Made by a program: the position numbers and the translations under genes. A stretch of DNA of 64,000 nucleotides, taken from Marinobacter similis. GTDB lineage: Bacteria; Pseudomonadota; Gammaproteobacteria; Pseudomonadales; Oleiphilaceae. The notes under the pieces were generated by a model that was not told where the DNA came from, made no database searches, and saw only the letters and a program-made list of their open reading frames with translations. This document shows positions 27,168 through 43,750 of this stretch, one piece after another. Where the stretch lies: assembly GCF_000830985.1 (NCBI RefSeq), contig NZ_CP007151.1, positions 496,001 to 560,000 of the forward strand, read 5' to 3'. How positions within the stretch are numbered: the first letter of the stretch is position 1; each line of letters starts with the position of its first letter.

Positions 27168-27832
27168 ATGGGCACTGCCGCTCGTACGCTCGGGTACCCT
27201 GCATCGCTGTTACCGGCACTTGTGCTGGCGACAGCCTTGGTCGGTGCCCTCGAGCTCAGCAGCCGCCTGATGAACTACGTGCAGCAGGAGTTCGGTACCG
27301 AGCTTTCGAACGCCTCGAGAACTGGCAGCGCCTGCACAAGCTCGCCGCCAATGCGCCGGTCGAGCGCCAGCTCGAGCTTGTGAACCGCTTTTTCAACCGC
27401 GTTAAATTTGTCAGCGATATTCGTCACTGGGGCGAGGAGGATTACTGGGCCACGCCGGTGGAATTGCTCACCACCAACGCCGGCGACTGCGAGGACTTCT
27501 CCATCGCCAAGTACCTGACCCTGAAATCCATGGGCGTACCGGATGACCAACTGCGTGTGGTGTATGTAAAAGCGCTGGAGCTGAACCAGGCCCACATGGT
27601 TCTGGCCTGGTACTCGGAACCCAATGCCGATCCGTTGATCCTCGACAACCTTATAAATGAGATAAAGGTTGCTTCCCAACGCACTGATCTTGAACCTGTT
27701 TACAGCTTTAATGGTGAAGGTCTTTGGCTAAACAACTCATCCGGCGGCGAAGGAGAGCGCATCGGCGAGGCGCAGAAGCTTTCCCGCTGGCAGGAATTGA
27801 ACGAGCGCCTGACCGACTCCCTACAGCAATGA
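27168..27832 (+). CDS. LapG-like transglutaminase-like cysteine protease, frame-disrupted
   Basis: An exported bacterial transglutaminase-like cysteine proteinase (BTLCP), the family of LapG, which cuts large surface adhesins and releases biofilm. An N-terminal hydrophobic segment (LLPALVLATALVGALELSS) exports or anchors it. The catalytic triad is visible: Cys in GDCEDFSIAKY, His in NQAHMVLAWY, Asp in LILDNLINEI. The family motifs WGEEDYWATPVELL and LRVVYVKAL are present. One missing base near 27300 breaks the frame after QQEFGTE; repaired length about 221 aa. It starts eight bases after gspC. No LapD or adhesin gene is in the window, so the link to biofilm release is by family only. Confidence 0.85.
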
Positions 27833-27856
27833 TAATCCCCATCTCTGGATGCTCAT

Positions 27857-27893
27857 CGATTTTCACAAAAATGCTTTATACTGTGAAAAATCG
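27857..27893. promoter_or_regulatory. Inverted repeat and -10 of the Xre-RES operon
   Basis: TTTTCACA (27860-27867) and TGTGAAAA (27882-27889) form a perfect 8-bp inverted repeat with near-matching flanks (CGAT / ATCG). The spacer contains a possible -10, TATACT (27877-27882). It lies 17 bases before the antitoxin start, where autorepression by the Xre protein is expected. Confidence 0.65.
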
Positions 27894-27909
27894 ACAAAGG
27901 AGCTCCATC

Positions 27910-28275
27910 ATGAGTACCGCACAGCTCCCCAACGAGCAAACACAAGACAAAGCACTGCTTGCAAAAGCCCTGCTCAACGCCGGGAAGGCCTTCGGCTTCA
28001 ACCAGACCGAACTGGCCGACATTGTGGGCCGGAACCGGACCGGGCTGGTGCGGGACGGCATTGATCCCGCCAGCAAGTCCGGTGAGCTCGCCCTGCTCTT
28101 CATTCGGCTTTACCGCAGCGTATTTGCGCTGACCGGCGGCGAACCTGCGGCCATGAAGCACTGGATAAACACCGAAAACCGTTACTTTGATGAAGTGCCG
28201 CGGCAGCTAATCAAATCGGCGGAAGGGCTGGTTCGGGTGAATCACTACCTGGATGCCATGCGAGGTAAGGTGTGA
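27910..28275 (+). CDS. Xre/MbcA/ParS-type antitoxin (DUF2384)
   Basis: A 121-aa antitoxin of the Xre-RES class. The N-terminal helix-turn-helix (AFGFNQTELADIVGRNRTGL) should bind the operator. The C-terminal toxin-binding domain (residues about 75-121) has MKHWINTENRYFDEVPRQLI, characteristic of the family. ATG 27910 has a good AAAGGAG site. Its stop overlaps the toxin start by four bases (GTGA), the usual order of antitoxin first. The frame is intact. Confidence 0.9.
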   Translation: MSTAQLPNEQTQDKALLAKALLNAGKAFGFNQTELADIVGRNRTGLVRDGIDPASKSGELALLFIRLYRSVFALTGGEPAAMKHWINTENRYFDEVPRQLIKSAEGLVRVNHYLDAMRGKV

Positions 28276-29066
28276 GTTATGAAGAGCGCATCTATAGAGC
28301 CCTCGAACCGCTGCAGGGAACAGCGTATCGGGTGGTGGAGTCTCAGGAGGAAATAGCCACCACGCGGCTGGTGGATAACATACCGGAACAAGCCCGCCTG
28401 GAAGAGCTACTGGAGGCTACCAAACCGGCTCGCGCGAAGAGCACCGACAAGCTTCATTACCTGCTGGCCACCCCATTTCGCTACCCACCACTGAAACACG
28501 GGTCACGGTTCGGCCGCGCGTTCGAAAAAAGCCTGTTCTACGGCGCCATGACTATCAACACCGCGCTGGCCGAAACCGCTTTTTACCGTTTTGTGTTCGT
28601 CAGCCATGTGAGTGCGCCATTCCCAAAGCCCCTGCAAACCCTTCACACGGTATTCGGCGCCAGGGTTCGGAGCGAGCACGGCGTGCGCCTGCAGGATTCC
28701 GCCTGGCAGGATCTCCACGAGCCGCTTACCCATCCTTCGAGCTATGCCCTGACCCAATCCCTGGGCACCCAGATGCGGACGTGCGGCGTGCACTGCTTTC
28801 AGTTCCTGTCCGCCAGAGCGCGACAGGCAGAACTGTACCGCCTGCCCTACGATGCCGGAGATGGCATGGAAGGCATCAATGTTGCGTTGTTCGAGCCGAG
28901 TGCGCTTAAAGACCGGAAACCCCGAGAATCCTCCCGCCTGATAATCGTGACTGGACCGGAATCCGTGTCCATGAGCCTGACGTTGGCGGATGGCTCTCGA
29001 CAGGTTTCGGAGTTTGCTCTGAGCAGCTTTTTAATTGATGGCCGGCTGCCTGATCCTGCGGCGTAA
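28272..29066 (+). CDS. RES-domain toxin
   Basis: A 264-aa protein with a RES domain; characterised members degrade cellular NAD+ and stop growth. Visible conserved parts are YRALEPLQGTAYRVV near the N-terminus, RFGRAFEKSLFYGA (with the Arg and Tyr of the RES pocket), ALAETAFYRFVF, and a late AELYRLPYDAGDG region. It starts with GTG inside the antitoxin stop, so translation is coupled. It is longer than minimal RES toxins, with an extra N-terminal segment of about 60 residues. No frame problem is seen. Confidence 0.88.
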   Translation: MSYEERIYRALEPLQGTAYRVVESQEEIATTRLVDNIPEQARLEELLEATKPARAKSTDKLHYLLATPFRYPPLKHGSRFGRAFEKSLFYGAMTINTALAETAFYRFVFVSHVSAPFPKPLQTLHTVFGARVRSEHGVRLQDSAWQDLHEPLTHPSSYALTQSLGTQMRTCGVHCFQFLSARARQAELYRLPYDAGDGMEGINVALFEPSALKDRKPRESSRLIIVTGPESVSMSLTLADGSRQVSEFALSSFLIDGRLPDPAA

Positions 29067-30191: not shown

Positions 30192-30818
30192 CTAACCTTG
30201 CTCATACTCCCGAACCAGCTCCTGCAAAAAGTAGAAACCGGCGGAACTCAGGAAGCAGCGGCTGGCTCCGGAACGAAACAGCAGGTTGCGTTTATCGAGA
30301 TAGTCCAGGGCCTCCGAGAAACCTTTCTCGAAGCGCGCAGCCCGGAGAATTTCCTGATATTCCTCATCGCCTGCCAAGGCAGTAAGGTCGTTCTCATTCA
30401 GTCCGGCATCCGGACGACCAAGGTATTCCAGATCCCGCCCGCTACGAGCGAAATAACGCCCGATCAACAGCAGTATGACCTGCACCCGGAAGGCGTTCTC
30501 GTCGTGCTCCTCGTTTTCGTCATCACTGCTTTCCTTGAGAAAGAAAAACGCGCCGGTTTCGTTAAACGCCAGCTCGCTGCCCAGGTGTTCGTAAAATGTC
30601 CTGAAATGGGACAAATGGTTATACAGCAGATTGTAGAGCGGATTGGCTCGCAGCTCGGAACGGTTGTTGTCCCAGACGTCACGCACAATCACCCGGCCGG
30701 CCTGAAATTCCCGGTAGATCGCAGCGCTCCGGGCCGGCAGGATCTGCTCGAAGCTGCTCGAAGTTTGTGAATGGTCCACGGATTCGTTGGTTTCCATCGC
30801 GTCAGTGATGTCAGGCAT
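30192..30818 (-). CDS. KITE-like subunit (JetB/MksE-like) of an SMC cassette
   Basis: A 208-aa cytosolic protein, last gene of the four-gene cassette. Two winged-helix-like halves are suggested: ANPLYNLLYNHLSHFRTFYE with LGSELAFNETGAFFFLKE, then FRVQVILLLIGRYF and ALDYLDKRNLLFRSGASR. This layout, small size and place next to an SMC gene resemble MksE/JetB (DUF4194). The start ATG 30818 overlaps the preceding stop by eight bases. In characterised systems the KITE subunit binds the kleisin and holds the SMC ring. The assignment is by pattern and context, not by a close match. Confidence 0.65.
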   Translation of the reverse strand: MPDITDAMETNESVDHSQTSSSFEQILPARSAAIYREFQAGRVIVRDVWDNNRSELRANPLYNLLYNHLSHFRTFYEHLGSELAFNETGAFFFLKESSDDENEEHDENAFRVQVILLLIGRYFARSGRDLEYLGRPDAGLNENDLTALAGDEEYQEILRAARFEKGFSEALDYLDKRNLLFRSGASRCFLSSAGFYFLQELVREYEQG

Positions 30819-32255
30819 GCTGTTGCTCTTCTTGATTGGCCGGGGCGTTGCTTTGAATAGTTTCCAGGTTTTCCAGGCGACGCTTCCGGTAGACAAACTG
30901 TTCGCCGTCCGATGACTGGTCCAGGATTCGGAAGCGGTTGGTGGTAACCACCTGCAGACCCTCCGGCGGCGAGTTGACCAGACGGTTCAGCGCTGCCAGC
31001 AAATCCGGAAAGCGATAGCCCGGTATGAAGCCATCCAGCCGGCCGTGCAGCTCCCGCACAAGATCGTTGGTAGGCCGCAGCTCCAGGGTTTCCAGCCATT
31101 GATAAAGCTGGTTGATACGCTGTACATCAATCCGGGTATGGCGTCCGCTGACGTCGACCTGCTGCAGTACCGGCACCTCGGCCTTGCGGCGGAGGTCGTT
31201 CAGGCGCAGCTCCAGTTCGCTAAACAACAGCTGGTAATAGCTGGACGATTCACCGAAGGCGTAGTGTTTCGGGCGCTGCTGGGCCCGCAAGCCCACGAGG
31301 AAGCCAGTACTGCGGGCAAAATCACCGCCCTCCAGCCATTTTCTCTTGAGGCTGAGGGTCTCGGTTTCGCTCTTGAGCTCCTGAAGCTTGCCGTAGAAAT
31401 GCTCCATTGCGTTGTACTGGACCATGCCCTGACGGGTCTTGCGCAGAAAGTGCTCCACCTCCTGAGCCACCGCCTGAATGGGTTTGTACAAGGCGTTAAG
31501 GCTAATGGAGGAACGGAACAGCTGATCGGCCAGGCTATGGTCATCATGCTTTCCAGTAGCCTAACCATGGCTTCCAGGGTCTCAAACAGGTTACTGCCAT
31601 CGGGCAGTCGGGTATCCGGATTCAGGAACACCAGAGTCGGCTTTATGTGGCGTTCGTAGAGAGTAACGATCTGCTCAAACAGGTTCTGGCGGAACTCCAG
31701 ATATTTCTCAGGCGCCCGACTGGCGTCTCCGGAAAGATCCGCAAGCTGGGCACTGATAGTCTGCATGCGCAGGACATTCTGACGCAGCAAACCAATGAGC
31801 TGGCTGACCCGCTCGTTCAGATCGTCCCTCAGTTCGGTGTAGTCCAGGTCGGCAGCGCTGAAGCTGCTGGTTTCCAAGCGGTTACGCACGTCCCGAAGGG
31901 TCACCAGATGGCCCCGCAGACGGGCATCCGTCAGTTCCTGATAGAGCGAAGCGTTACAGGCTCGCATCAGGTTGATCAGGGCATCCTGGAACACCAGTCG
32001 CCGCTCGCCTTCGGCCTTGATGATGTCGATCACCAGGCCGCTCCGGAACAGATTGTCAGTATTCAATGCAAGCCGCACCCGGTCCCGGTCGGCATTGCCA
32101 AGGGTGCGGGTATAGTCCATCACCTCAGCCACCAAATCACTCTCGCGAATATACCGGGCTTCGTTTCGGTCCATCCGTTCGATCATCCGGAACAGAATCT
32201 TCGGGTGCTCGAACAACAGCCGGGTGGTGTCCAGGGTGCTGAAGCGTTTACTCAT
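30811..32255 (-). CDS. Kleisin-like subunit (JetA/MksF-like) of an SMC cassette, frame-disrupted
   Basis: About 481 aa when one base is restored near 31535 (after LLESMMT). The N-terminal winged helix (residues 1-80: TRLLFEHPKILFRMIERMD; VRLALNTDNLFRSGLVI) is followed by a long helical region (LNERVSQLIGLLRQNVLRMQ; AVAQEVEHFLRKTRQGMVQY). A C-terminal winged-helix-like part has RINQLYQWLETLELRP and FRILDQSSDGEQFVYRKRR. This order matches MukF/MksF kleisins, which bridge the SMC heads. The start overlaps the SMC stop by eight bases. Confidence 0.65.
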
Positions 32256-35185
32256 CCGCCGGCTCCAGCAGGCTGCTCTGGGACTGATCGGCCCATTGGC
32301 TCAAGGATTCGCCGTTGGTAAAACCCTCAGCCCCGCCCCAGAACACCAGGGTGCGCTGCGGGCTGTAAGGCCGCGCCGTGCGCATCTGCCCCACTTCCAG
32401 GTGCCTGCCGATCAGGTAGATCACTTCCGCGCTGGCACTGTGAGTAGCGGCAGAGAACAAATTGAAGCCCTGCTTGCGCAACCGTTCCAGCAGCGAGGGC
32501 ATCTGGCTGATGTCCACGCTGGCCAGCTCGTCCAGCACCATGGGGAACGACAGCTGCACGCCGGGATACAACACGCGCTTCAACAGCCGGTACACCAGCT
32601 CTAGATTGATCAATGCCGTGGTGGAGGTGGACTGGCCTTTCTTGTCCAAGCTCGCAGCGTTTTCCTTACGAGTGCGGTAGGAAATGCCGGTGATCACTCT
32701 GTCCATGGTCAGGCGCTTGCTACCGCTCTCACCGAAAAAGTCCGCCACGAAGACCCGCAACCGGTCATAGAACGCGTCCGACTGCAGCTGGTTGCCATAG
32801 GGATCGATGTTGTTGGCTTCTTCCACCAGATTGCGGAATTTCGGATCGGTGTGGATATCCACCCGGATTTCCACCAGATCGTTGATGCACACCCCATCCA
32901 GCTCGCGGTTCAGCTGCGCTTCAAACCGGGCAATGTGCTCATGGTTGGATTTCAGGGCCTGCCGGTAGCTGGCGACTGTCTCATTATGGATTCCAACCTG
33001 CTGCTCCAGCACATTCCATTGCTCGACCATGCCGGCAAACAGGTCCGACAGGCTTTTGAACGTTTCCCGGATGACCGATGAGGCCGGGCTGTCTTTCTGC
33101 AATTCGCCTTCGGTATCTTCGTGGATGCCGAGATAAACAAATTGGCGAAGGTGGTCGAGAATACTGCGACGGCGCTCTTCCAGGTCGTCCAGCTGGGTTT
33201 GAAGGTCGTCGAACGCGGCGACAGACACCTGCTCAATAGCCAGCGGCTGCTCGACTTCCACGGTTCTCAGATGCGGAAAGCGGTGCTCCACGGTTCCGAC
33301 GCTTCGGCTCAGACCCGTCAGTTCCCGCTCCCGCTCCTCAATACGCTCTTTTTCGGCCCTGGCTTTGGCGGCCTTCTGCTGAACCGCATCCTGCTTCTCC
33401 TGCTCCAGACGGGCCTGCTCTTCCAGCTTGGCCAGCTGCTCCTCCGCCGCCTGTTTCTCCTCAGTAGCGTCCCTCAGTGTGGTTGCAGCTCCCGGGTAAC
33501 GGCTCAGGGTATCCAGATCCTTTACGATGGCGCGGATCTCTTTTTCCGTGCGTTCGATCAACCGTGGCCGGTCATGTTCCTGGTTGGCGGTATCTGCCAG
33601 TTCAGCCCGCTCCTTTTCCAGGCCCTGGAGCTCACCTTCAATATGCCGGCGCTGCTCTGCAAAGTCAGTCTGCCGAGCTGGCTGGGCCACGTATTCGGCA
33701 TCGAACCAGTCGAAGCCTTTATCATTAGGCACGAACAGCCGGGCAAAAGCTTCTATGGCCGCCTTGCTGTCGGCATCCAGATCCTGGCCCGGGCTGGCCA
33801 TAACCAACCGTGGGTCCACGGCCCGTAGCGGTGCCGCGGTGGCTTCATCCAACTGGTTCTGCAGCTGCCACTGCTGTTTGCTTTCCCGATCCTTCAAGGA
33901 TTCCAGCTTGCGCTCAAGCTCCTGCTTCTTGTTCTGGATCTGCACCAGCCGGATTTCCGCTTGGGCGGCACTCTTTAGCGCAGCCAGATGACCTTTCTTG
34001 CTATCGAGTTCCTCTTTCTGGATGTCCTCGATTTCCTGAAGGGTCATCTCCCGTATTGGGACACCAGCAAATCGCCATCTTTCTGGCTCTGCTCTGCCTG
34101 CTTGATGCGCCGATCGGCTGAACGGATCTCGCCCTTCAGGCCGCTGGATTCTTGCTCCAGCTTTTTCAGAACCTGGAGCACATGGCGCAGAGTCTCGTTC
34201 TGTTCATTGAACGCCTCTACTGCGGCTTTGCGCTTGGCACCAATGTCCTGCAAGGCATTGCTGACGCCATCCCGGAAAGCGGCAAAATCGTGCTGGCTGC
34301 GAAGCAGGGTTTGGTAGGCCTGATAATCCCCTTGCAGCTTCTCGAACCGTGAACGCTCTTTTTCAATCTGGTTCAGCTGGATTTGCTGTTGCTTAAGTTG
34401 ATCATGCCGATTGAGGAACTCATCGATGTTGAAATCGAAGGCATCGTCGGCAAACTTCTTGTCCGCCTCGATGATGCTGGCCACCGCATTAGACATGGCC
34501 TGATCGTCTGCCTTCATTTCAAACAGCAGCAGGATCAACGTGCGCAGCGACTGCACCCGGCGCTCGTCGGACTCACCCAACGGCAGCACCGAATAACGCA
34601 CGGCATCGGCGTTCATCAACTCGCTGCTGTACAGCATCTGTTTGAGTTTCGCCGGGTCATTCACCAGCCGGGTATCTTTGGAAAACTTCTTCAGGGTCTC
34701 GGACAAGCGGCTGAACGACAGCTCCGGCACCGCCTGGCCGATTCCGTCCTCGTCGTCACCATTCCAGAACAGCGGCCGCAGCTGGTCGTAGCCCACCGGC
34801 ACGAAAGCGCGGCCATAGCTGAGCTGACTGGCGCTGTCCCGGTACAGAATTTGGCAATGCACCCCTGCCGGGTTCTCAGCTCCATGATCAGGAAACTGAA
34901 CTGGCTCGGAAAGTAGTGCTGGTAGCTTTCCTCGTTAGTGTAAAAGCTGCCGGCACTGGCGTTGCGGAACGCAAATTTCTTGCGGCTGTTCTTGAAGTTG
35001 TTTTCCGGCAGCAGGAACAGACGCAGGCTGTTTAAAAGGCTGGACTTGCCCAGATTGCCCGGGCCAAGGATCAGGCCATGGTTGTCCACCGGAATTTCCA
35101 CGTAACAGAAGCCGGCGGAATCCACCAATACCAGACGGCGAATACCAAAATTGAAATTGCCTGGGCTCCCCTGGGAGTCACTCAT
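32248..35185 (-). CDS. SMC-like ATPase (JetC/MksB-like), frame-disrupted
   Basis: About 979 aa once two bases are restored (near 34880 in a G-run, and near 34045). The N-terminal head has an unusual Walker A, GPGNLGKSS, at residues 41-49. Long coiled coils occupy the middle (for example EELDSKKGHLAALKSAAQAE and REREREL-like segments around 33300-33450). The C-terminal head has a signature-like GQSTSTTALINLELV and a Walker B, LSFPMVLDELASVD. The arrangement is that of SMC/MukB/MksB/JetC loop-extruding ATPases. The sequence is distant from textbook JetC: it begins FNFGIRRLVLVDSAGFCYVE rather than the usual N-W-G-T-F head. Overlaps of eight bases tie it to both neighbours. Confidence 0.75.
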
Positions 35186-35960
35186 CCAGAATCATCTCCT
35201 GTTCCATGAATTTTCCGGTTGCCCGGAAGGCCTCTTTTAGGGATGTAAATCCCAGCCTCTCCGCCAGGGAAACTGCCTTTGTGAAGCGTTCAGTGCTGTC
35301 CGGTATTTTGTGAAACCGGTATAGCCAGGGCTGCCAGTCAGGTGGCTGCACAAAACTGGTTTTATCGCCGATAAACGCGGTCATCGTCGAATACATTTGC
35401 AGGCCACCAGCATCATAATCGAATGCGCAGAATACTTCTTCGTAACCCTTCAACCACTCGAGAATCGCGCCCCGGGTAATCCGGTTGCCACCGCCCAATA
35501 CCACATCACACTCCGCCAACGTCACGCGGTTGCCCAGTGCCTCACTGACAAAGTTCAGCATCTGTGAGTATTGGAAGAAATTACGCTCGTTCTCCACCAC
35601 CAGTACCGAACGTCCCCGGCGAAAACCGATATCAACAGATTCGTTGCCTACAACGACCACATCCGGGCGGCTGGATGTCAGCCCCTGATGGTAAACCAGC
35701 AGAAAACTTACCTCAGTACCGTGGCGATGGGAGTCACCTTTTTTGGCGGCATCTACCCGGCTTACCGGAACCTCCGCGACATTCTGCAGCTCCGCGAAAC
35801 CGGTTTCATCCCGCACCGTGACCATCCACCGATTGGCCCCGACTTTCTCTGTTGCAAACATCTCCCTGTGACGGCGGCGAAACGCCTCCGGGAGCTTTTT
35901 CACGAACGATTCATAGTTGATCGGCAGACCGCGCAGGATTTTTTTTAGGTAGTCGTTCAA
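35178..35960 (-). CDS. Toprim nuclease subunit (JetD/MksG-like, DUF2220)
   Basis: A 260-aa protein and first gene of the cassette. The C-terminal half is a Toprim/DUF2220 fold: catalytic Glu123 in LVVENERNFF, a glycine turn VLGGGNRITRGAILEWL, and the DxD pair Asp181/Asp183 in CAFDYDAGGLQMY. In Wadjet and MksBEFG systems this subunit cuts the plasmid caught by the SMC complex. It is shorter than typical JetD, with an N-terminal part of only about 115 residues. It starts at TTG 35960 behind a GGTG site, and its stop overlaps the SMC start by eight bases. Gene order Toprim-SMC-kleisin-KITE differs from the usual jetABCD. Confidence 0.75.
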   Translation of the reverse strand: MNDYLKKILRGLPINYESFVKKLPEAFRRRHREMFATEKVGANRWMVTVRDETGFAELQNVAEVPVSRVDAAKKGDSHRHGTEVSFLLVYHQGLTSSRPDVVVVGNESVDIGFRRGRSVLVVENERNFFQYSQMLNFVSEALGNRVTLAECDVVLGGGNRITRGAILEWLKGYEEVFCAFDYDAGGLQMYSTMTAFIGDKTSFVQPPDWQPWLYRFHKIPDSTERFTKAVSLAERLGFTSLKEAFRATGKFMEQEMILDE

Positions 35961-38565: not shown

Positions 38566-39895
38566 TTAACCCGCACGCCCGCGACGCGCCTTTTTTACCG
38601 CCCTGGACCGGCTGAACTCATCCTTCACAAAGGCACCAACCGCCTTGAGGATGCTCAACTCCGGATCCACTGCCTGGTCATCCGCCAGCCTAAAAATCTG
38701 CTGGTAATACCAGGCCTGACCGCCCAATACGTTGATGATTTTAAGCGGCATCAGCGGACTGACCGGCGAGAAAAATCCCCGCTGCGCGAGCTTCACGTGA
38801 TCTTCGTGGCAAACGGTTTTATCAATGCGCGCGTCAAGCAAATCCCTGGGTGTATCGGGATCCGTGCAAAGCGGTCGGCCAAGGCCAATTACGTCGGTTT
38901 CGCCGCTGGCAATCGCCTCTTCCATAAACGTGCGCGTGCGGAATCCACCGGTAACCATCAGCGGGCAATCGCACACCTCTCGAATCGTTTGGGCGTAATC
39001 CAGGAAGTAAGCTCCCGCTTGCGAGTGCTTTCCCGCATGGCCGGGCCATCGCTCGCCGTGTCGGCATCACCGCTGTACCCGAGCAGCCGCGGCTGCTCGT
39101 AGGTGCCGCCGGACACCTCCAGCAGATCAACACCCTCCTCATTGAGCCAGCGCACCACGCTCACAGACTCATCAAGCGTAAACCCGCCCTTGCGGAAATC
39201 GTCGGAATTCAGCTTTACCGCTACCGGAAATTCCGGCCCCACGGCAGCGCGCGTCGCCCGCACCACCTCGAGCAGGAAGCGGGCGCGATTCTCCAGCGAC
39301 CCACCCCAGCGATCAGTGCGCTGGTTGGTGACCGGCGACAGAAAAGACGACAACAGATACCCATGAGCCCCATGCACCTGAACGCCAGTGAAGCCCGCAT
39401 CTTTCGCGATCCGCGCCACGTTGGCAAAGCGCTGGATAAAATCGAGTATCTCTGGCTCCGTGAGTGCCCGTGGGCGGGCGTAGTTGCCCATCAGCGATAA
39501 CTGCACCGCCGATGGCCCCATTGGGCGCGTAGTAACGTAACGCGGCGACTGGCGACCGGCATGGGAGATCTGCATCCACAAGTGATTGCCGTTACGTGTG
39601 CCTGCTTCCGCCCAGGCACGCAACTGCGCCATACCCTCCGGCTCTCCATCCTCAGGCACCGGATCAATCGCCACGTTACCCGGCCGCTCCAACACCCGGT
39701 GATCAATCATCACGTTGCCGGTAATCAACAGCCCCGCCCCGCCATCGGACCAACGCCGATACAGGGTTTCATGGCGGTGGGTGGCGTGGAGCTGATCGTC
39801 TGCTAGCCCTTCGGTCATGGCAGCTTGGCAATGCGGTTGGGCAGTACTGCTCCGCAGGGGAGTTTCAGGGGTTGGGCGAGGGGCGATTGGGGCAC
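38566..39895 (-). CDS. NADH:flavin oxidoreductase (old yellow enzyme family), frame-disrupted
   Basis: An FMN-dependent ene-reductase-type TIM barrel of about 443 aa. Family parts in order: LPNRIAK at the start of the barrel, ISHAGRQSPRYV, GFTGVQVHGAHGYLLSSFLS with NQRTDRWGGSLENRARF, VAVKLNSDDF, LLEVSGGTYEQP, and the FMN phosphate region MVTGGFRTR with DVIGLGRPLC. Two missing bases break it: near 39822 (the frame really begins upstream, probably at GTG 39895, giving RIAKAAMTEGLADD) and near 39010. There is no C-terminal Fe-S or FAD module. The substrate is unknown. It ends next to the defence-like fusion gene. Confidence 0.85.
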
Positions 39896-39902
39896 GGTAG
39901 TC

Positions 39903-42900
39903 TTAATCCGTCGAATTTAGTCTGAAAATTACGCTCATTGGGCCGCTTCCTTCATGGCTTTGATACTCGACGGGGCCGAAATAGGTAAAGGGCGCCGCTT
40001 TACCATTACGCAGCTTATTATCGCGGACAAATAGGTGCACTGAGAGTCCCAGCTTTCTGTGTTCGATCAGTTCCCGACCGCGTTTGTTTTGGGGCGTGGT
40101 TGAGTTCTGACTCTGCCAATGAAATGTTTGCTCATCAATCCAATGATCGACATACCGATGCTCGACGCCCTTACCCTGCTTGTTTAACGTCACAAGCAAA
40201 ACATGTGCATTGGCATCTTTCAGGAAGACATGGCCACTTTGCCAATTGCCAGGATTAAAAGTCGCTCCGAATAGCTCCGGAATCTCCTCTCTCGGGATTT
40301 CCTGTCCGAGAGCCATTTCCAATGGATCGATAACCTCACAAAAGCGTGCGAACGTTCGAAACTGTTCGAGAAGCTCTGGCGTGACAATAATGTCTTCATA
40401 CTCCGAGTTAGCGGCTTCGAGAACATATTCACCGACCGGGGATTTACGAACTGTCCGCAGAAGATACTGGGTGTCACCAGTCTCATCGAGCCGCTCAATA
40501 GCGAGCGTATTGTCTGTGATGGACCCGGCCTGACCAGGGTTCATTTGCTCAAGCAATAGATAATCCCCATCTTGGATCGGCTGCTTGCCGCCATTCATAG
40601 AGTTACCCGATGCTCTAGCAATGAAATGCCGAGTTGGCTCTATTCGCCCACGCCCCAATCCGATGGACCTGTACTCCGGTTCTTCAGCGTTACTGCTTCT
40701 AAAGTGGCCACAAGCGATCTTCAAGGATGGAAAGTAAGGCAACTCCGTTCCAGAAGGAGTGATCGGGACTACATTTTCAGACGAAGACTGCACTAGCTTA
40801 GAAGACTCGCGTGCTTCGTAGGAAGCCAGACGGTAATCAATTAACTCCTGCACCATCTCCTCGAAAGGCGGTATCTGCGCACCTTCCAGCCCAATAACAG
40901 GCTTAAATTGATCGTTCTCGATCTCAAAAACAGCTGGCGACTTATTGGTCCAATGATCGACTGGGTTCTTCTTCCAGTATTGCTGCCATTGCGCCGAGGA
41001 ACCATCCGCGTCTTTCACTGAAGTAGCAATTTCTTGATAAAGCCTGGGACGGCGTTTCAGTGTCTCCCAGGATGTTTGGGCCAGTTTTGAGAGCTTTGGT
41101 GGACTACGCCATCCGCCTAACTGCTGGAACGCGTCCAGCAATATCATTTTGAACGATTTACTCATGGCCGTCGTTTCAACTTCCAGCAGAAACGTCTCGT
41201 AGCGGGACAATAGTTCTGCCTTAATCTTAGTGAGATCCTCCATATCCCGAACCAATCCAAACCAGCTTCCGTGCAATTTGCGAGTCTTGGCGATACTGGC
41301 ACCGAAACGGTAGTACTCTGTGAGGGTTGGGCGACGACCCAACGTATCTTTCAATACCTGATAGTCTTTTTCAGCGCCCTGATGATCAAGGCCCTTAAGG
41401 AAGTCGATCACCGCCAGATCGTAATTGATAAAGCATCCGTCTGGCAGGTCCAGCTGGTTCTTTTCAGCTTTCCTGGCAAACTCCGCTAACTGTCGGTGAT
41501 TCATTGCCTGGCCAATAAGCGCCTGAGGTTTGTGCAGGAAACTCTGGTGGTTCCCAACAAAATCCAGAATCACCAGCTTGTCTTTGCCAGTGGCCGCGCT
41601 TTTCCGTAGGCCCCGACCGATCTGCTGGAGGAAAAGGATCTTGGATTCCGTTGGGCGCAAGAGCAGCACCGTATCAATAGCGGGCAGATCGACACCCTCG
41701 TTGAACAGATCAACGGAAAAAATCACTTCGAGCTGACCGTTCTCCAACTTCTCCAAAGCCTCGCCACGGGACATCTCTGATTCACCGTGGACGGCTGCAG
41801 ACCTTACGCCCTTTCTAGAGAATTGGTCTGCCATGAAATCGGCATGAGCCCGCGAAACACAAAACGCCAAAGTCCTGCTTTGCTTCTGCTCGCCCCATAC
41901 CCTAAGCACGTGTTTGGCACGTCCGTATGTAGCCAGCTTATTCGCGAGCAGATTGGGATCGAACTTTCCGTTACGCCAGGGGATCTCGGTGTAATCGACA
42001 GTCTCGTCGTAGATGCCATAGTAGTGAAACGGCACCAGGAATTGTCCCTTGACACCCTCGAACAACGGATACTCGAATACCAGGTTGTCATCGCATAACG
42101 ACAAGATATCGGAGCGGTCCGTGCGATCTGGCGTCGCCGTTAAACCCAGCAGAAACTGGGGCGCGAAATAATTCAGAAGCCGATGATAGACAGGCGCGGC
42201 GGCATGGTGGAATTCATCGACAACGATGTAATCGAAATGGCGTGGGTCGAATCGTTCCAGATGGGTTTCTTTGCCGAGTGTCTGTACCGAAGCACAAAGG
42301 ATATCCACCGTCCGATCTCGCTGCTTACCCATGAAAAAGCCAACACGGCTATTCGGCTTGATCCGCAAGTAGGTTTCAGCCGCCTGATAAAGAATTTCTT
42401 CGCGGTGGGCGACAAAAAGAATCCGACGCGCACCCATTTGAACGGCATCAAACGCAGATAGCCAGGTTTTACCTAAGCCCGTTGCTAACACGACCAAACC
42501 TCTGCGGTAACCTTCTACGCGGGTCAGTTCCAGTGACTCTAGCGCTTCCTGTTGCACTTCATTAGGTTTTGGAACTTCCTGCTTCTCGTCACTGCCCGGT
42601 TCCAATGACTGTTCTGGTGGTTTCCTCCTTTTCTCGTACTCATCAATCCAGTTGTCTGTGAGCGGCACAACATTTGGGTGCTGAAACAGTTCATCGAACC
42701 TGCTGGCAGCCTCGAGGTACCCAGAGTCGGGCGGGAAATCCACCTGATAATTCCATTCCAACCCGTCCTGCAGCGCTTGTCGGCTGATATTGCTAGAGCC
42801 GATGAACGCCCTGCCCCACATTTGCTGATTCTCAACATGGCCAGCGAACAAGTAAGCTTTCAAATGAAAGCTACTCCCTTTGCTTTGATAGACACGCACC

Positions 42901-43750
42901 TGAGCGCCATGGTCATGCAACAGAACAAGCTTTCGAAGGGCCTCTGTGTCGGTAATGTCCAAATAATCACTGGTGAGAATGCGGATACGAGTCGGATCAG
43001 GAGTTCGCTGCAGCGCGCTCACCAAATCCGGGAACAATAGATTTAGGCCGGTGGTTTTAACAAAAGCTACCGCCATATCTACCTGATCAGCAGCTTTAAT
43101 TGCCTGGCAAAGCTTGGGTAAGAAATGATGTTCTTTCCCGCCCGTCGTCAGCTTTTCGTGGGAAGCCGGCGCCTTGGTCAGAAGAATGTTCAACCACTGC
43201 TCATCCCTATCAGGACGCTGATCATCAGTGCGCCACATCTGGCAAGCTTCATAGTCTGTCAGGTCCTGAATCCACTGCTCGGCAATCGACTCGTCAGCGT
43301 CAGTAAAGTGCCGGCCATTGTGGTCACGTTCCCCCTGGCCAACCTTGAAACTCATGTAGAAAACGCCATCCGGTTTCAGGGCATTCCATAACCGTTCAAT
43401 AGCTCTGGGTACTTCAGCGAGAGGCAAATGCAAAAGGCTGGCACAAGCCAGATGCCGTCATACGTAATGGATTCTTGAACGTCTGAAAAAGACCTGTGCT
43501 GAATTGGCAACCCGGTCTTTTGGCGGGCAAGAGAGGTGATGGCTTTTGAGCCATCGAAAGCAGAAACGCGGTAGCCATTCTGTTTGAAGTACAAAGCATC
43601 TCGACCAGAACCACAGCCCGCATCCAGAATGTGTCCACCTTCGGGAACTTGTGGCAAGAACTCTCGGTAAAGGTCTTCCATGCTGACCTCAAAAGTAGAC
43701 TCCACAAAGTCGTCGGCATTACTGTCGTAATAGCTCAGCGTATCCTGCAT
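39903..43750 (-). CDS. Methyltransferase-PLD-SF2 helicase-S24-DUF3427 fusion, frame-disrupted
   Basis: A giant protein of about 1282 aa. Residues 1-205: class I SAM methyltransferase (motif I ILDAGCGSGRDALYF). About 215-390: phospholipase-D-like nuclease (HLKAYLF and IGSSNIS). About 400-800: SF2 helicase with Walker A LATGLGKTW, DEFH box VVDEFHH, LTATPDR and IGRGLRKS. Near 1040-1110: an S24/LexA-like segment with ASGNSMNGGKQPIQDGDYLL. The C-terminus is DUF3427 (HWQSQNS-type motif; LFVRDNK; TYFGPVEYQSHEG). One missing base near 43435 inside the methyltransferase splits the ORF. The S24 Ser is kept, but the Lys position seems to be Arg or Leu. It follows the DUF2075 gene after 140 bases on the same strand. 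Probably nucleic-acid defence; the exact role is unknown. Confidence 0.85.

What the first reader, a model, noticed from the sequence alone, without database searches (positions are those of the whole stretch)
30192..35960. Divergent Wadjet/MksBEFG-like cassette with order Toprim-SMC-kleisin-KITE
Four tightly coupled genes encode a DUF2220/Toprim protein (Glu123, Asp181, Asp183), an SMC-like ATPase of about 979 aa, a winged-helix kleisin-like protein and a small KITE-like protein. This is the subunit set of Wadjet (JetABCD), which traps and cuts plasmids. Differences: the Toprim gene is first, it is short (260 aa), and the SMC head motif (GPGNLGKSS; no N-W-G-T-F start) is unlike textbook JetC. 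It may be a distinct subtype.
Basis: partly seen in the sequence, partly recalled or inferred. Interest (0 to 1): 0.75.

Follow-up and report, generated by a model that had tools for sequence, protein, structure and literature searches.

The report
Uncatalogued Mks-type SMC–Toprim nuclease cassette
A four-gene bacterial machine, probably one that reels in small circular DNA and cuts it, belongs to a little-known branch of a known plasmid-defence family; it has its own gene order, and some relatives have dropped the cutting part or moved it elsewhere while keeping the rest.

Summary
The four genes are real: Toprim (260 aa), SMC, kleisin-like, KITE. In this assembly the SMC and kleisin frames are broken by three one-base frame changes; the assembly's housekeeping smc and an OYE gene are broken likewise and relatives have intact copies, so assembly error is likelier than decay. 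It is not textbook Wadjet: PADLOC Jet models score at most 27.7 bits, against 734-1627 for five type I SMC controls. By profile, SMC, KITE and (weakly) kleisin lie closest to MksBEF; the Toprim is about equally near a short Toprim of MksBEF operons and JetD. The SMC-head tree puts it with MksB, apart from JetC and MukB (99.1/100). The order Toprim-SMC-kleisin-KITE holds in all 37 cassettes read. The Toprim core models like C. glutamicum MksG (Z 13.5), with a much shorter N-terminal part. Most likely a Wadjet-like anti-plasmid nuclease on the Mks branch; the function is inferred. Extra: among 21 Marinobacter genomes with this SMC, 4 lack the Toprim and 2 keep it at another locus, while the core stays under strong purifying selection, as expected of a Wadjet-to-condensin transition. 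A 2025 Wadjet-group census may already contain this clade; its supplement could not be read.

The parts
35178..35960 (-). Toprim nuclease gene (JetD/MksG-like), 260 aa, TTG start, intact
   Evidence: ORF; Pfam JetD_C 19 bits, below its cut-off of 22; AF2 pLDDT 88; best VIA-align match MksG 8b7f Z 13.5 over residues 81-260; E123, D181, D183, E253-Q-E255 invariant in 13 of 13
34691..35185 (-). SMC gene, first frame piece: residues 1-102 of the SMC with Walker A; overlaps the Toprim stop
   Evidence: Walker A GPGNLGKS
34044..34862 (-). SMC gene, second frame piece: about residues 103-379, coiled coil
32248..34047 (-). SMC gene, third frame piece: about residues 380-979, coiled coil and C-terminal head with Walker B
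31200..32255 (-). kleisin-like gene, first frame piece (residues 1-236; the rest of this frame is out of register)
   Evidence: weak profile match to MksF 65.8%, E=5.7e-5
30811..31491 (-). kleisin-like gene, second frame piece (about residues 236-481 match from 31511 on)
30192..30896 (-). KITE (MksE-like) gene; as listed from a TTG it is 234 aa; an ATG at 30818 that overlaps the kleisin stop is a plausible true start
   Evidence: Pfam MksE 78.6 bits, E=9.3e-22; sequence

Best explanation
The cassette encodes an MksB-E-F type SMC complex with its own Toprim nuclease, written in the order G-B-F-E (Toprim, SMC, kleisin, KITE). It most likely works like Wadjet: an SMC dimer bridged by kleisin and KITE loads on DNA and reels it in with ATP; on a small circle extrusion runs to completion, and the stalled complex hands the DNA to a Toprim dimer that cuts both strands. 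Shown here: gene content, a fixed order, homology of SMC, KITE and Toprim (kleisin weakly), conserved ATPase and Toprim residues, a MksG-like Toprim model, and repeated loss or relocation of the nuclease gene beside an intact core. Inferred from characterised relatives: extrusion, plasmid recognition, cleavage. The N-terminal part before the Toprim is about 80 residues, against about 214 in MksG, so docking and autoinhibition of the nuclease must differ. In some Marinobacter the core persists without the nuclease, so it may also have a chromosome-directed role.
For: Subunit profiles against MksBEF with short Toprim: SMC 100% E=2.7e-40 over 847 columns, KITE 95.9% E=5.7e-9, Toprim 96.7% E=4.2e-10, kleisin 65.8% E=5.7e-5; 14 mismatched controls E>=0.026. 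SMC-head split {JetC1, JetC2, MukB} against {MksB, DUF7281 class, window type} 99.1/100; window-type clade 94.4/91. Pfam MksE on KITE 78.6 bits. Toprim model nearest MksG. Order Toprim-SMC-kleisin-KITE in 37 of 37 cassettes read. Divergent members beside Gabija and type III restriction genes (L058), a candidate defence ATPase (L057), an integrase (L059), WYL regulators (L171, L172, L182; L115 by similarity). A Toprim of this kind was found in no Marinobacter genome lacking an SMC of this kind.
Against: No functional test. Four of 21 Marinobacter genomes keep the core without the Toprim, which a purely defensive unit does not predict. The kleisin rests on a weak match and position; its AF2 model failed (pLDDT 46), and single comparisons gave 0.4% to one MksF and 13% to JetA. 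The MksBEF profiles hold only 3-4 sequences. The Toprim is nearly tied between MksBEF Toprims and JetD. Foldseek alone had one match under E=0.001, topoisomerase VI A.
Confidence: 0.62

Rival explanations
1. It is chiefly a chromosome-organising condensin (MksBEF-like). The Toprim is an accessory enzyme acting on chromosomal DNA and not an anti-plasmid weapon.
For: SMC and KITE lie on the MksB side. Core intact in four genomes without the Toprim; SMC plus kleisin omega 0.03-0.08 in six pairs with a Toprim-less member, as in eight pairs with the gene in place (0.04-0.07).
Against: The Toprim keeps all catalytic acids and tracks the SMC. 16 of 37 Marinobacter genomes lack the SMC, so it is not essential in the genus. 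The genome has an ordinary smc gene. Divergent members lie in defence or mobile contexts.
Confidence: 0.22
2. It is simply a diverged member of Wadjet type I, II or III.
For: Toprim profile matches JetD (96.3%, E=1.9e-9), SMC C-head matches JetC1 (99.4%). From memory, DefenseFinder lists some types with JetD first; not checked.
Against: PADLOC Jet models at most 27.7 bits on window-type proteins against 734-1627 bits for five type I controls. Tree split 99.1/100. The 12 type I loci read have kleisin-KITE-SMC-Toprim order and a Toprim of about 375-440 aa. The one type II SMC is 1392 aa and groups with JetC1.
Confidence: 0.09
3. In this strain the cassette is a decaying pseudo-operon.
For: Three frame changes in two of four genes.
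Against: The broken pieces are still 93-99% identical to L004 proteins. The housekeeping smc and an OYE gene of the same assembly are broken likewise. The genome is one contig at only 94.86% estimated completeness.
Confidence: 0.07

Closest known systems
MksBEF condensin operons with a short Toprim gene at the end (L060, L180, L181; L061 without)
   Same: SMC of 923-950 aa with the same head start, MksE-type KITE, kleisin of similar size, short Toprim (277-303 aa) with E, DxD and [ED]QE
   Different: Order kleisin-KITE-SMC-(Toprim) against Toprim-SMC-kleisin-KITE; separate clade in the head tree; NCBIfam condensin models fit L060 but not the window type
Wadjet type I (JetABCD / MksBEFG of C. 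glutamicum)
   Same: Four-subunit composition; Toprim with E...DxD...EQE; Toprim core model like MksG 8b7f and JetD 7til
   Different: Order, SMC length and head motifs, Toprim without the long N-terminal part, S-H in place of S-K before the Toprim core; PADLOC models do not recognise it
DUF7281 class (L174-L176, L178): SMC-KITE-kleisin-Toprim
   Same: Same side of the SMC tree; short Toprim (282-289 aa; profile 93.9%)
   Different: Order, SMC of 1220-1237 aa; no convincing kleisin or KITE profile match (1.2% and 2.6%)
MukBEF (E. coli)
   Same: SMC-kleisin-KITE core; weak KITE profile match (55%)
   Different: SMC groups with JetC in the head tree; no nuclease gene annotated beside it

Membership tests
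Wadjet/Mks group (broad) | SMC ATPase with Walker A and Walker B, in an operon with kleisin and KITE genes | tested here: met
   Walker motifs, MksE on KITE, gene order; the kleisin only weakly
Wadjet/Mks group (broad) | JetD/MksG-type Toprim nuclease gene in the operon | tested here: met
   lost or moved in 6 of 30 loci
Wadjet/Mks group (broad) | Restriction of small circular plasmids | not testable with these tools
   Only a hint: 2 of 72,556 plasmid records had a full-length SMC match (320 and 599 kb) and 2 more a head-only match (380 and 859 kb)
Wadjet type I (PADLOC JetA1-D1) | Recognised by the JetA1-D1 profile models | tested here: not met
   At most 27.7 bits (JetC1, coiled coil of L004), 25.8 (JetD1, L113), 21.9 (JetB1, window); no JetA hit
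Wadjet type I (PADLOC JetA1-D1) | Order kleisin-KITE-SMC-Toprim | tested here: not met
   12 of 12 type I loci read have it; 37 of 37 window-type cassettes do not
Wadjet type II / III | Recognised by type II / III profile models | tested here: inconclusive
   Best JetC2 15.6 bits and JetD3 17.2 bits; no type III locus was found as a control
MksBEF condensin | SMC and KITE of the MksB and MksE families | tested here: met
   but NCBIfam equivalog cut-offs are not reached
MksBEF condensin | Order kleisin-KITE-SMC | tested here: not met
   SMC-kleisin-KITE here
MksBEF condensin | Role in chromosome organisation | not testable with these tools
   No assay; core conserved without the Toprim in some species

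The most novel reading that the evidence does not exclude
This clade shows a plasmid-cutting SMC machine in the act of becoming a condensin. The same MksB-type core is kept intact while the nuclease gene is lost on at least three separate branches of one genus (4 of 21 genomes lack it) or kept as a lone gene elsewhere. Together with the short Toprim genes at the end of several MksBEF operons, this suggests that the Mks branch as a whole descends from nuclease-bearing systems and that nuclease-free MksBEF condensins are its disarmed tips.
Probability: 0.35. Interest if true: 0.8.

Novelty: new variant of a known kind. Interest (0 to 1): 0.58.

Why it matters
Whether MksBEF condensins descend from plasmid-defence machines by losing the nuclease is an open proposal (PMC10586767, passages read). 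Here is one genus in which close relatives carry the same core with the nuclease beside it, at a distance, or gone, so the proposal can be tested by gene swaps. The clade is also missed by the PADLOC models used, and its four genes are labelled 'hypothetical protein' on the two megaplasmids looked at, so it adds a likely barrier to transforming marine bacteria that annotation does not show.

Tried and rejected
Pseudogene in this strain: not the main reading, because unrelated genes of the assembly are broken in the same way. Textbook Wadjet: PADLOC scores, order and tree speak against it. Lamassu, Gabija or AriA-like ATPase: PADLOC matches of at most 19.5 bits, to the P-loop or coiled coil. 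Solved-structure sequence searches with the four profiles gave no Jet, Muk or Mks chain, which says only that sequence similarity is low. The AF2 model of the kleisin failed and was not searched. The phylum sample held no clear type III system. A search with the NCBIfam SMC model of Mks gave 1 of 114 genomes, so the MksB sample stayed small. Phage records: no match with the L057 SMC; other members were not tried there. DUF7281 occurs in no paper of the library; 'Marinobacter' with 'MksB' likewise. Whether the proposed plasmid target depletes plasmids in Marinobacter was not tested.

Rows dropped before counts: of the 35 loci, L002, L010, L011, L020 (cut by contig ends) and L033 (Toprim cut, SMC in two frames) are not among the 30 with full SMC. 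L031's kleisin has a stop in its frame; it was left out of alignment A6 and entered the tree truncated (359 codons). G025's Toprim is cut by a contig start and counted as present. L115 (truncated) is not among the 37 cassettes. mksB_L180 was listed but not used in the tree. Some support labels printed had shifted on rerooting; one search gives the true ones and is what I quote. PADLOC scans covered the window's seven ORFs, L057, L059, L113 (four proteins each), two of L004 and one of L114, not every member.

Full report
OBSERVATION. On the minus strand of 30192-35960 lie four overlapping genes. The Toprim gene is intact; the SMC gene is read in three frames and the kleisin-like gene in two. 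tblastn with proteins of Marinobacter lipolyticus AESS41 (L004) places the breaks at SMC residues 102/103 and 379/380 and kleisin residue 236, each a shift by one base. Relatives have an open SMC of 979-980 codons. The window's genome is one contig of 3.98 Mb, 94.86% complete. Its housekeeping smc is broken too: the TIGR02168 match is spread over three frames and the main frame has 19 stops in the middle. An OYE gene at 38.6-39.9 kb changes frame twice. I take the breaks as assembly errors.

WHAT THE SUBUNITS ARE. Toprim: Pfam JetD_C at 19 bits, below its cut-off of 22. The AF2 model has pLDDT 88. Foldseek gave one match under E=0.001, topoisomerase VI A, with JetD 7til at rank 3. The second look by VIA-align ranks C. 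glutamicum MksG first (Z 13.5, rmsd 2.9, 152 residues), then topoisomerase VI A (Z 10.4-11.1) and JetD (Z 10.7); these matches cover about residues 72-260. E123, D181, D183 and the final E-Q-E are invariant in the 13 aligned proteins. A motif R-x8-S-H precedes the Toprim core in 16 of 17 window-type proteins (not L172); the type I JetD alignment has an invariant K at the matching distance from a nearly invariant R (R184, K194). KITE: Pfam MksE, 78.6 bits. SMC: Walker A GPGNLGKS, Walker B PMVLDE, and a head that begins like MksB ('LVLVDSAGFCYVEIPVD' against 'LVLLNSAGYERAELPLD') and not like JetC ('N-W-G'). Kleisin: no family match; profile match to MksF 65.8% (E=5.7e-5), to JetA 27.6% (E=6.5e-4).

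WHICH BRANCH. Subunit profiles were compared in one script. Window type against MksBEF with short Toprim: Toprim 96.7%, kleisin 65.8%, KITE 95.9%, SMC 100% (847 columns). Against Wadjet type I: 93.9, 27.6, 16.6 and 99.0% (SMC C-head only). The 14 mismatched-subunit controls gave E of 0.026 or worse. Against this reading: the MksBEF sets hold only 3-4 sequences; with another alignment the Toprim-JetD match was 96.3%, E=1.9e-9, so the Toprim is nearly tied; earlier kleisin comparisons were 0.4% to a single MksF and 13% to JetA. A maximum-likelihood tree of 36 SMC heads (336 columns, LG+F+R4, unrooted) separates JetC1, JetC2 and MukB from MksB, the DUF7281 class and the window type at 99.1/100; the window-type clade of 14 has 94.4/91; which of the other two is its sister is unresolved (24.5/63).

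HOW COMMON AND HOW ARRANGED. One scan of genome contigs with the KITE protein gave 35 loci: 33 labelled Marinobacter, one Oleiphilaceae, one Halomonas. Profile searches with the SMC matched 5 of 369 genomes of the class (own genome counted; one of the five, G336, only over the first 107 positions) and 7 of 398 of the phylum (own counted). Divergent members L057, L058, L059, L113 and L114 have 20-25% SMC identity to L004. The order Toprim-SMC-kleisin-KITE holds in 37 of 37 cassettes that could be read: 24 of the 30 loci with full SMC (the other six lack a full Toprim there), and 13 others, L057, L058, L059, L062, L113, L114, L169-L173, L182, L183 (KITE cut in L169, two extra genes between SMC and kleisin in L183). 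In the 12 loci with JetD_C where four co-directional genes were read (L100-L111), the order was kleisin-KITE-SMC-Toprim; the five SMCs tested were PADLOC JetC1.

CONTEXT. L058 stands beside GajA, GajB and a type III restriction gene; L057 beside a PADLOC candidate (PDC-S46); L059 beside an integrase and a primase-like gene. WYL-domain genes flank L171, L172 and L182, and also the MksBEF locus L181; a similar protein flanks L115. Two megaplasmids (320 and 599 kb) carry full cassettes, the four genes annotated as hypothetical proteins. In Marinobacter the upstream flank is shared in part and the downstream flank hardly.

NUCLEASE LOSS AND RELOCATION. Of 37 Marinobacter genomes (own plus 36 of the same genus), 21 have this SMC at 60% identity or more. 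Of these, 17 have the Toprim (one, G025, cut by a contig start; one, G035, broken near its end) and 4 do not: G011, G023 and G031 hold remnants, G029 no match. Of the other 16 genomes only G026 has a Toprim of this kind, with its own divergent cassette. All this is one genus, so the genomes are not independent. In two of the 17 the Toprim lies on another contig than the SMC (G015, G035). In one search's set, 6 of 30 loci lack the full upstream Toprim. In the genomes of three of them (L003, L022, L024) a Toprim lies elsewhere, complete in two and broken near its end in that of L022; in those of L008, L015 and L016 there is none or only remnants. Beside the lone Toprim of L003's genome lie fragments of SMC (residues 4-50) and kleisin (233-270), so two cassette copies have decayed in a complementary way. 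On a tree of SMC and kleisin no split unites two of the three Toprim-less loci without loci that have the gene: L016 pairs with L025 (98), L008 with L021 (81), and L015 is separated by splits of 100; L003 lies apart from L022+L024 (100). G031 is not in that tree. SMC plus kleisin omega is 0.034-0.079 in six pairs with a Toprim-less member (highest for L015) and 0.038-0.068 in eight pairs with the gene in place; Toprim omega is 0.09-0.21 in 15 pairs. This does not date the losses; recent losses would give the same numbers.

LITERATURE. Seen as passages only: PMC10586767 (review; suggests that P. [quoted passage not shown]), PMC10123090 (mksFEBG order said to be conserved), PMC12287153 (C. cellulovorans Wadjet acts against conjugated plasmids), PMC7617805 (methods of a Wadjet-group census that allows an optional flanking MksG, and a remark that several members lack it), PMC8954581, PMC11680222 (S. 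maltophilia Wadjet I without jetD but with highly conserved jetABC, there taken as probably inactive), PMC9252829. So nuclease loss as such has precedents. I could not read the census supplement, nor Petrushenko 2011 or Deep 2022 (not held); DefenseFinder gene orders are from memory. In the ten searches made I saw no description of this gene order, but no search could ask for it exactly.

JUDGEMENT. Membership of the Mks side of the Wadjet/Mks group, with a Toprim, is well supported. Wadjet-like plasmid cutting is the most likely function, by analogy. A second, nuclease-free role of the core in some species is a reasonable inference from the losses and not shown.

Noticed in passing
L060:10838-11749, L180:9995-10876, L149:6005-6916, L181:1174-2007: MksBEF operons of Marinobacter and of another gammaproteobacterium end with a short Toprim gene (277-303 aa, DUF7281-like, with E, DxD and [ED]QE). 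The review read calls such MksBEF nuclease-free in P. aeruginosa, which was not examined here. L061 has no such gene.
   Followed up: partly
L174:3739-10152, L175:6279-12691, L176:1626-7961, L178:513-6845: A further SMC-nuclease arrangement, SMC (1220-1237 aa)-KITE-kleisin-DUF7281 Toprim, seen in four loci.
   Followed up: partly
L146:9618-10649: A lone intact Toprim with fragments of SMC and kleisin beside it, in the genome whose other cassette copy (L003) has lost its Toprim.
   Followed up: yes
window 27724-29066: RES-domain gene with an Xre/MbcA/ParS-type antitoxin gene before it: a likely toxin-antitoxin pair close to the cassette.
   Followed up: no
window 39903-43433: Large gene with PLD-like, helicase, S24 peptidase-like and DUF3427 domains; PADLOC type IV restriction model E=4e-113.
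   Followed up: no
NCBIfam NF040857 and NF040859: The names look exchanged: the 926-position model called MksF matches the SMC ATPase and the 412-position model called MksB matches the kleisin-sized protein.
   Followed up: no
L183:7929-8703: Two genes, one a DUF5406 protein, inserted between SMC and kleisin in the Photobacterium megaplasmid cassette.
   Followed up: no
window 38581-39895 and G000:C1:606850-610314: Frame changes in an OYE gene and in the housekeeping smc gene; the assembly seems to carry many one-base indels.
   Followed up: yes
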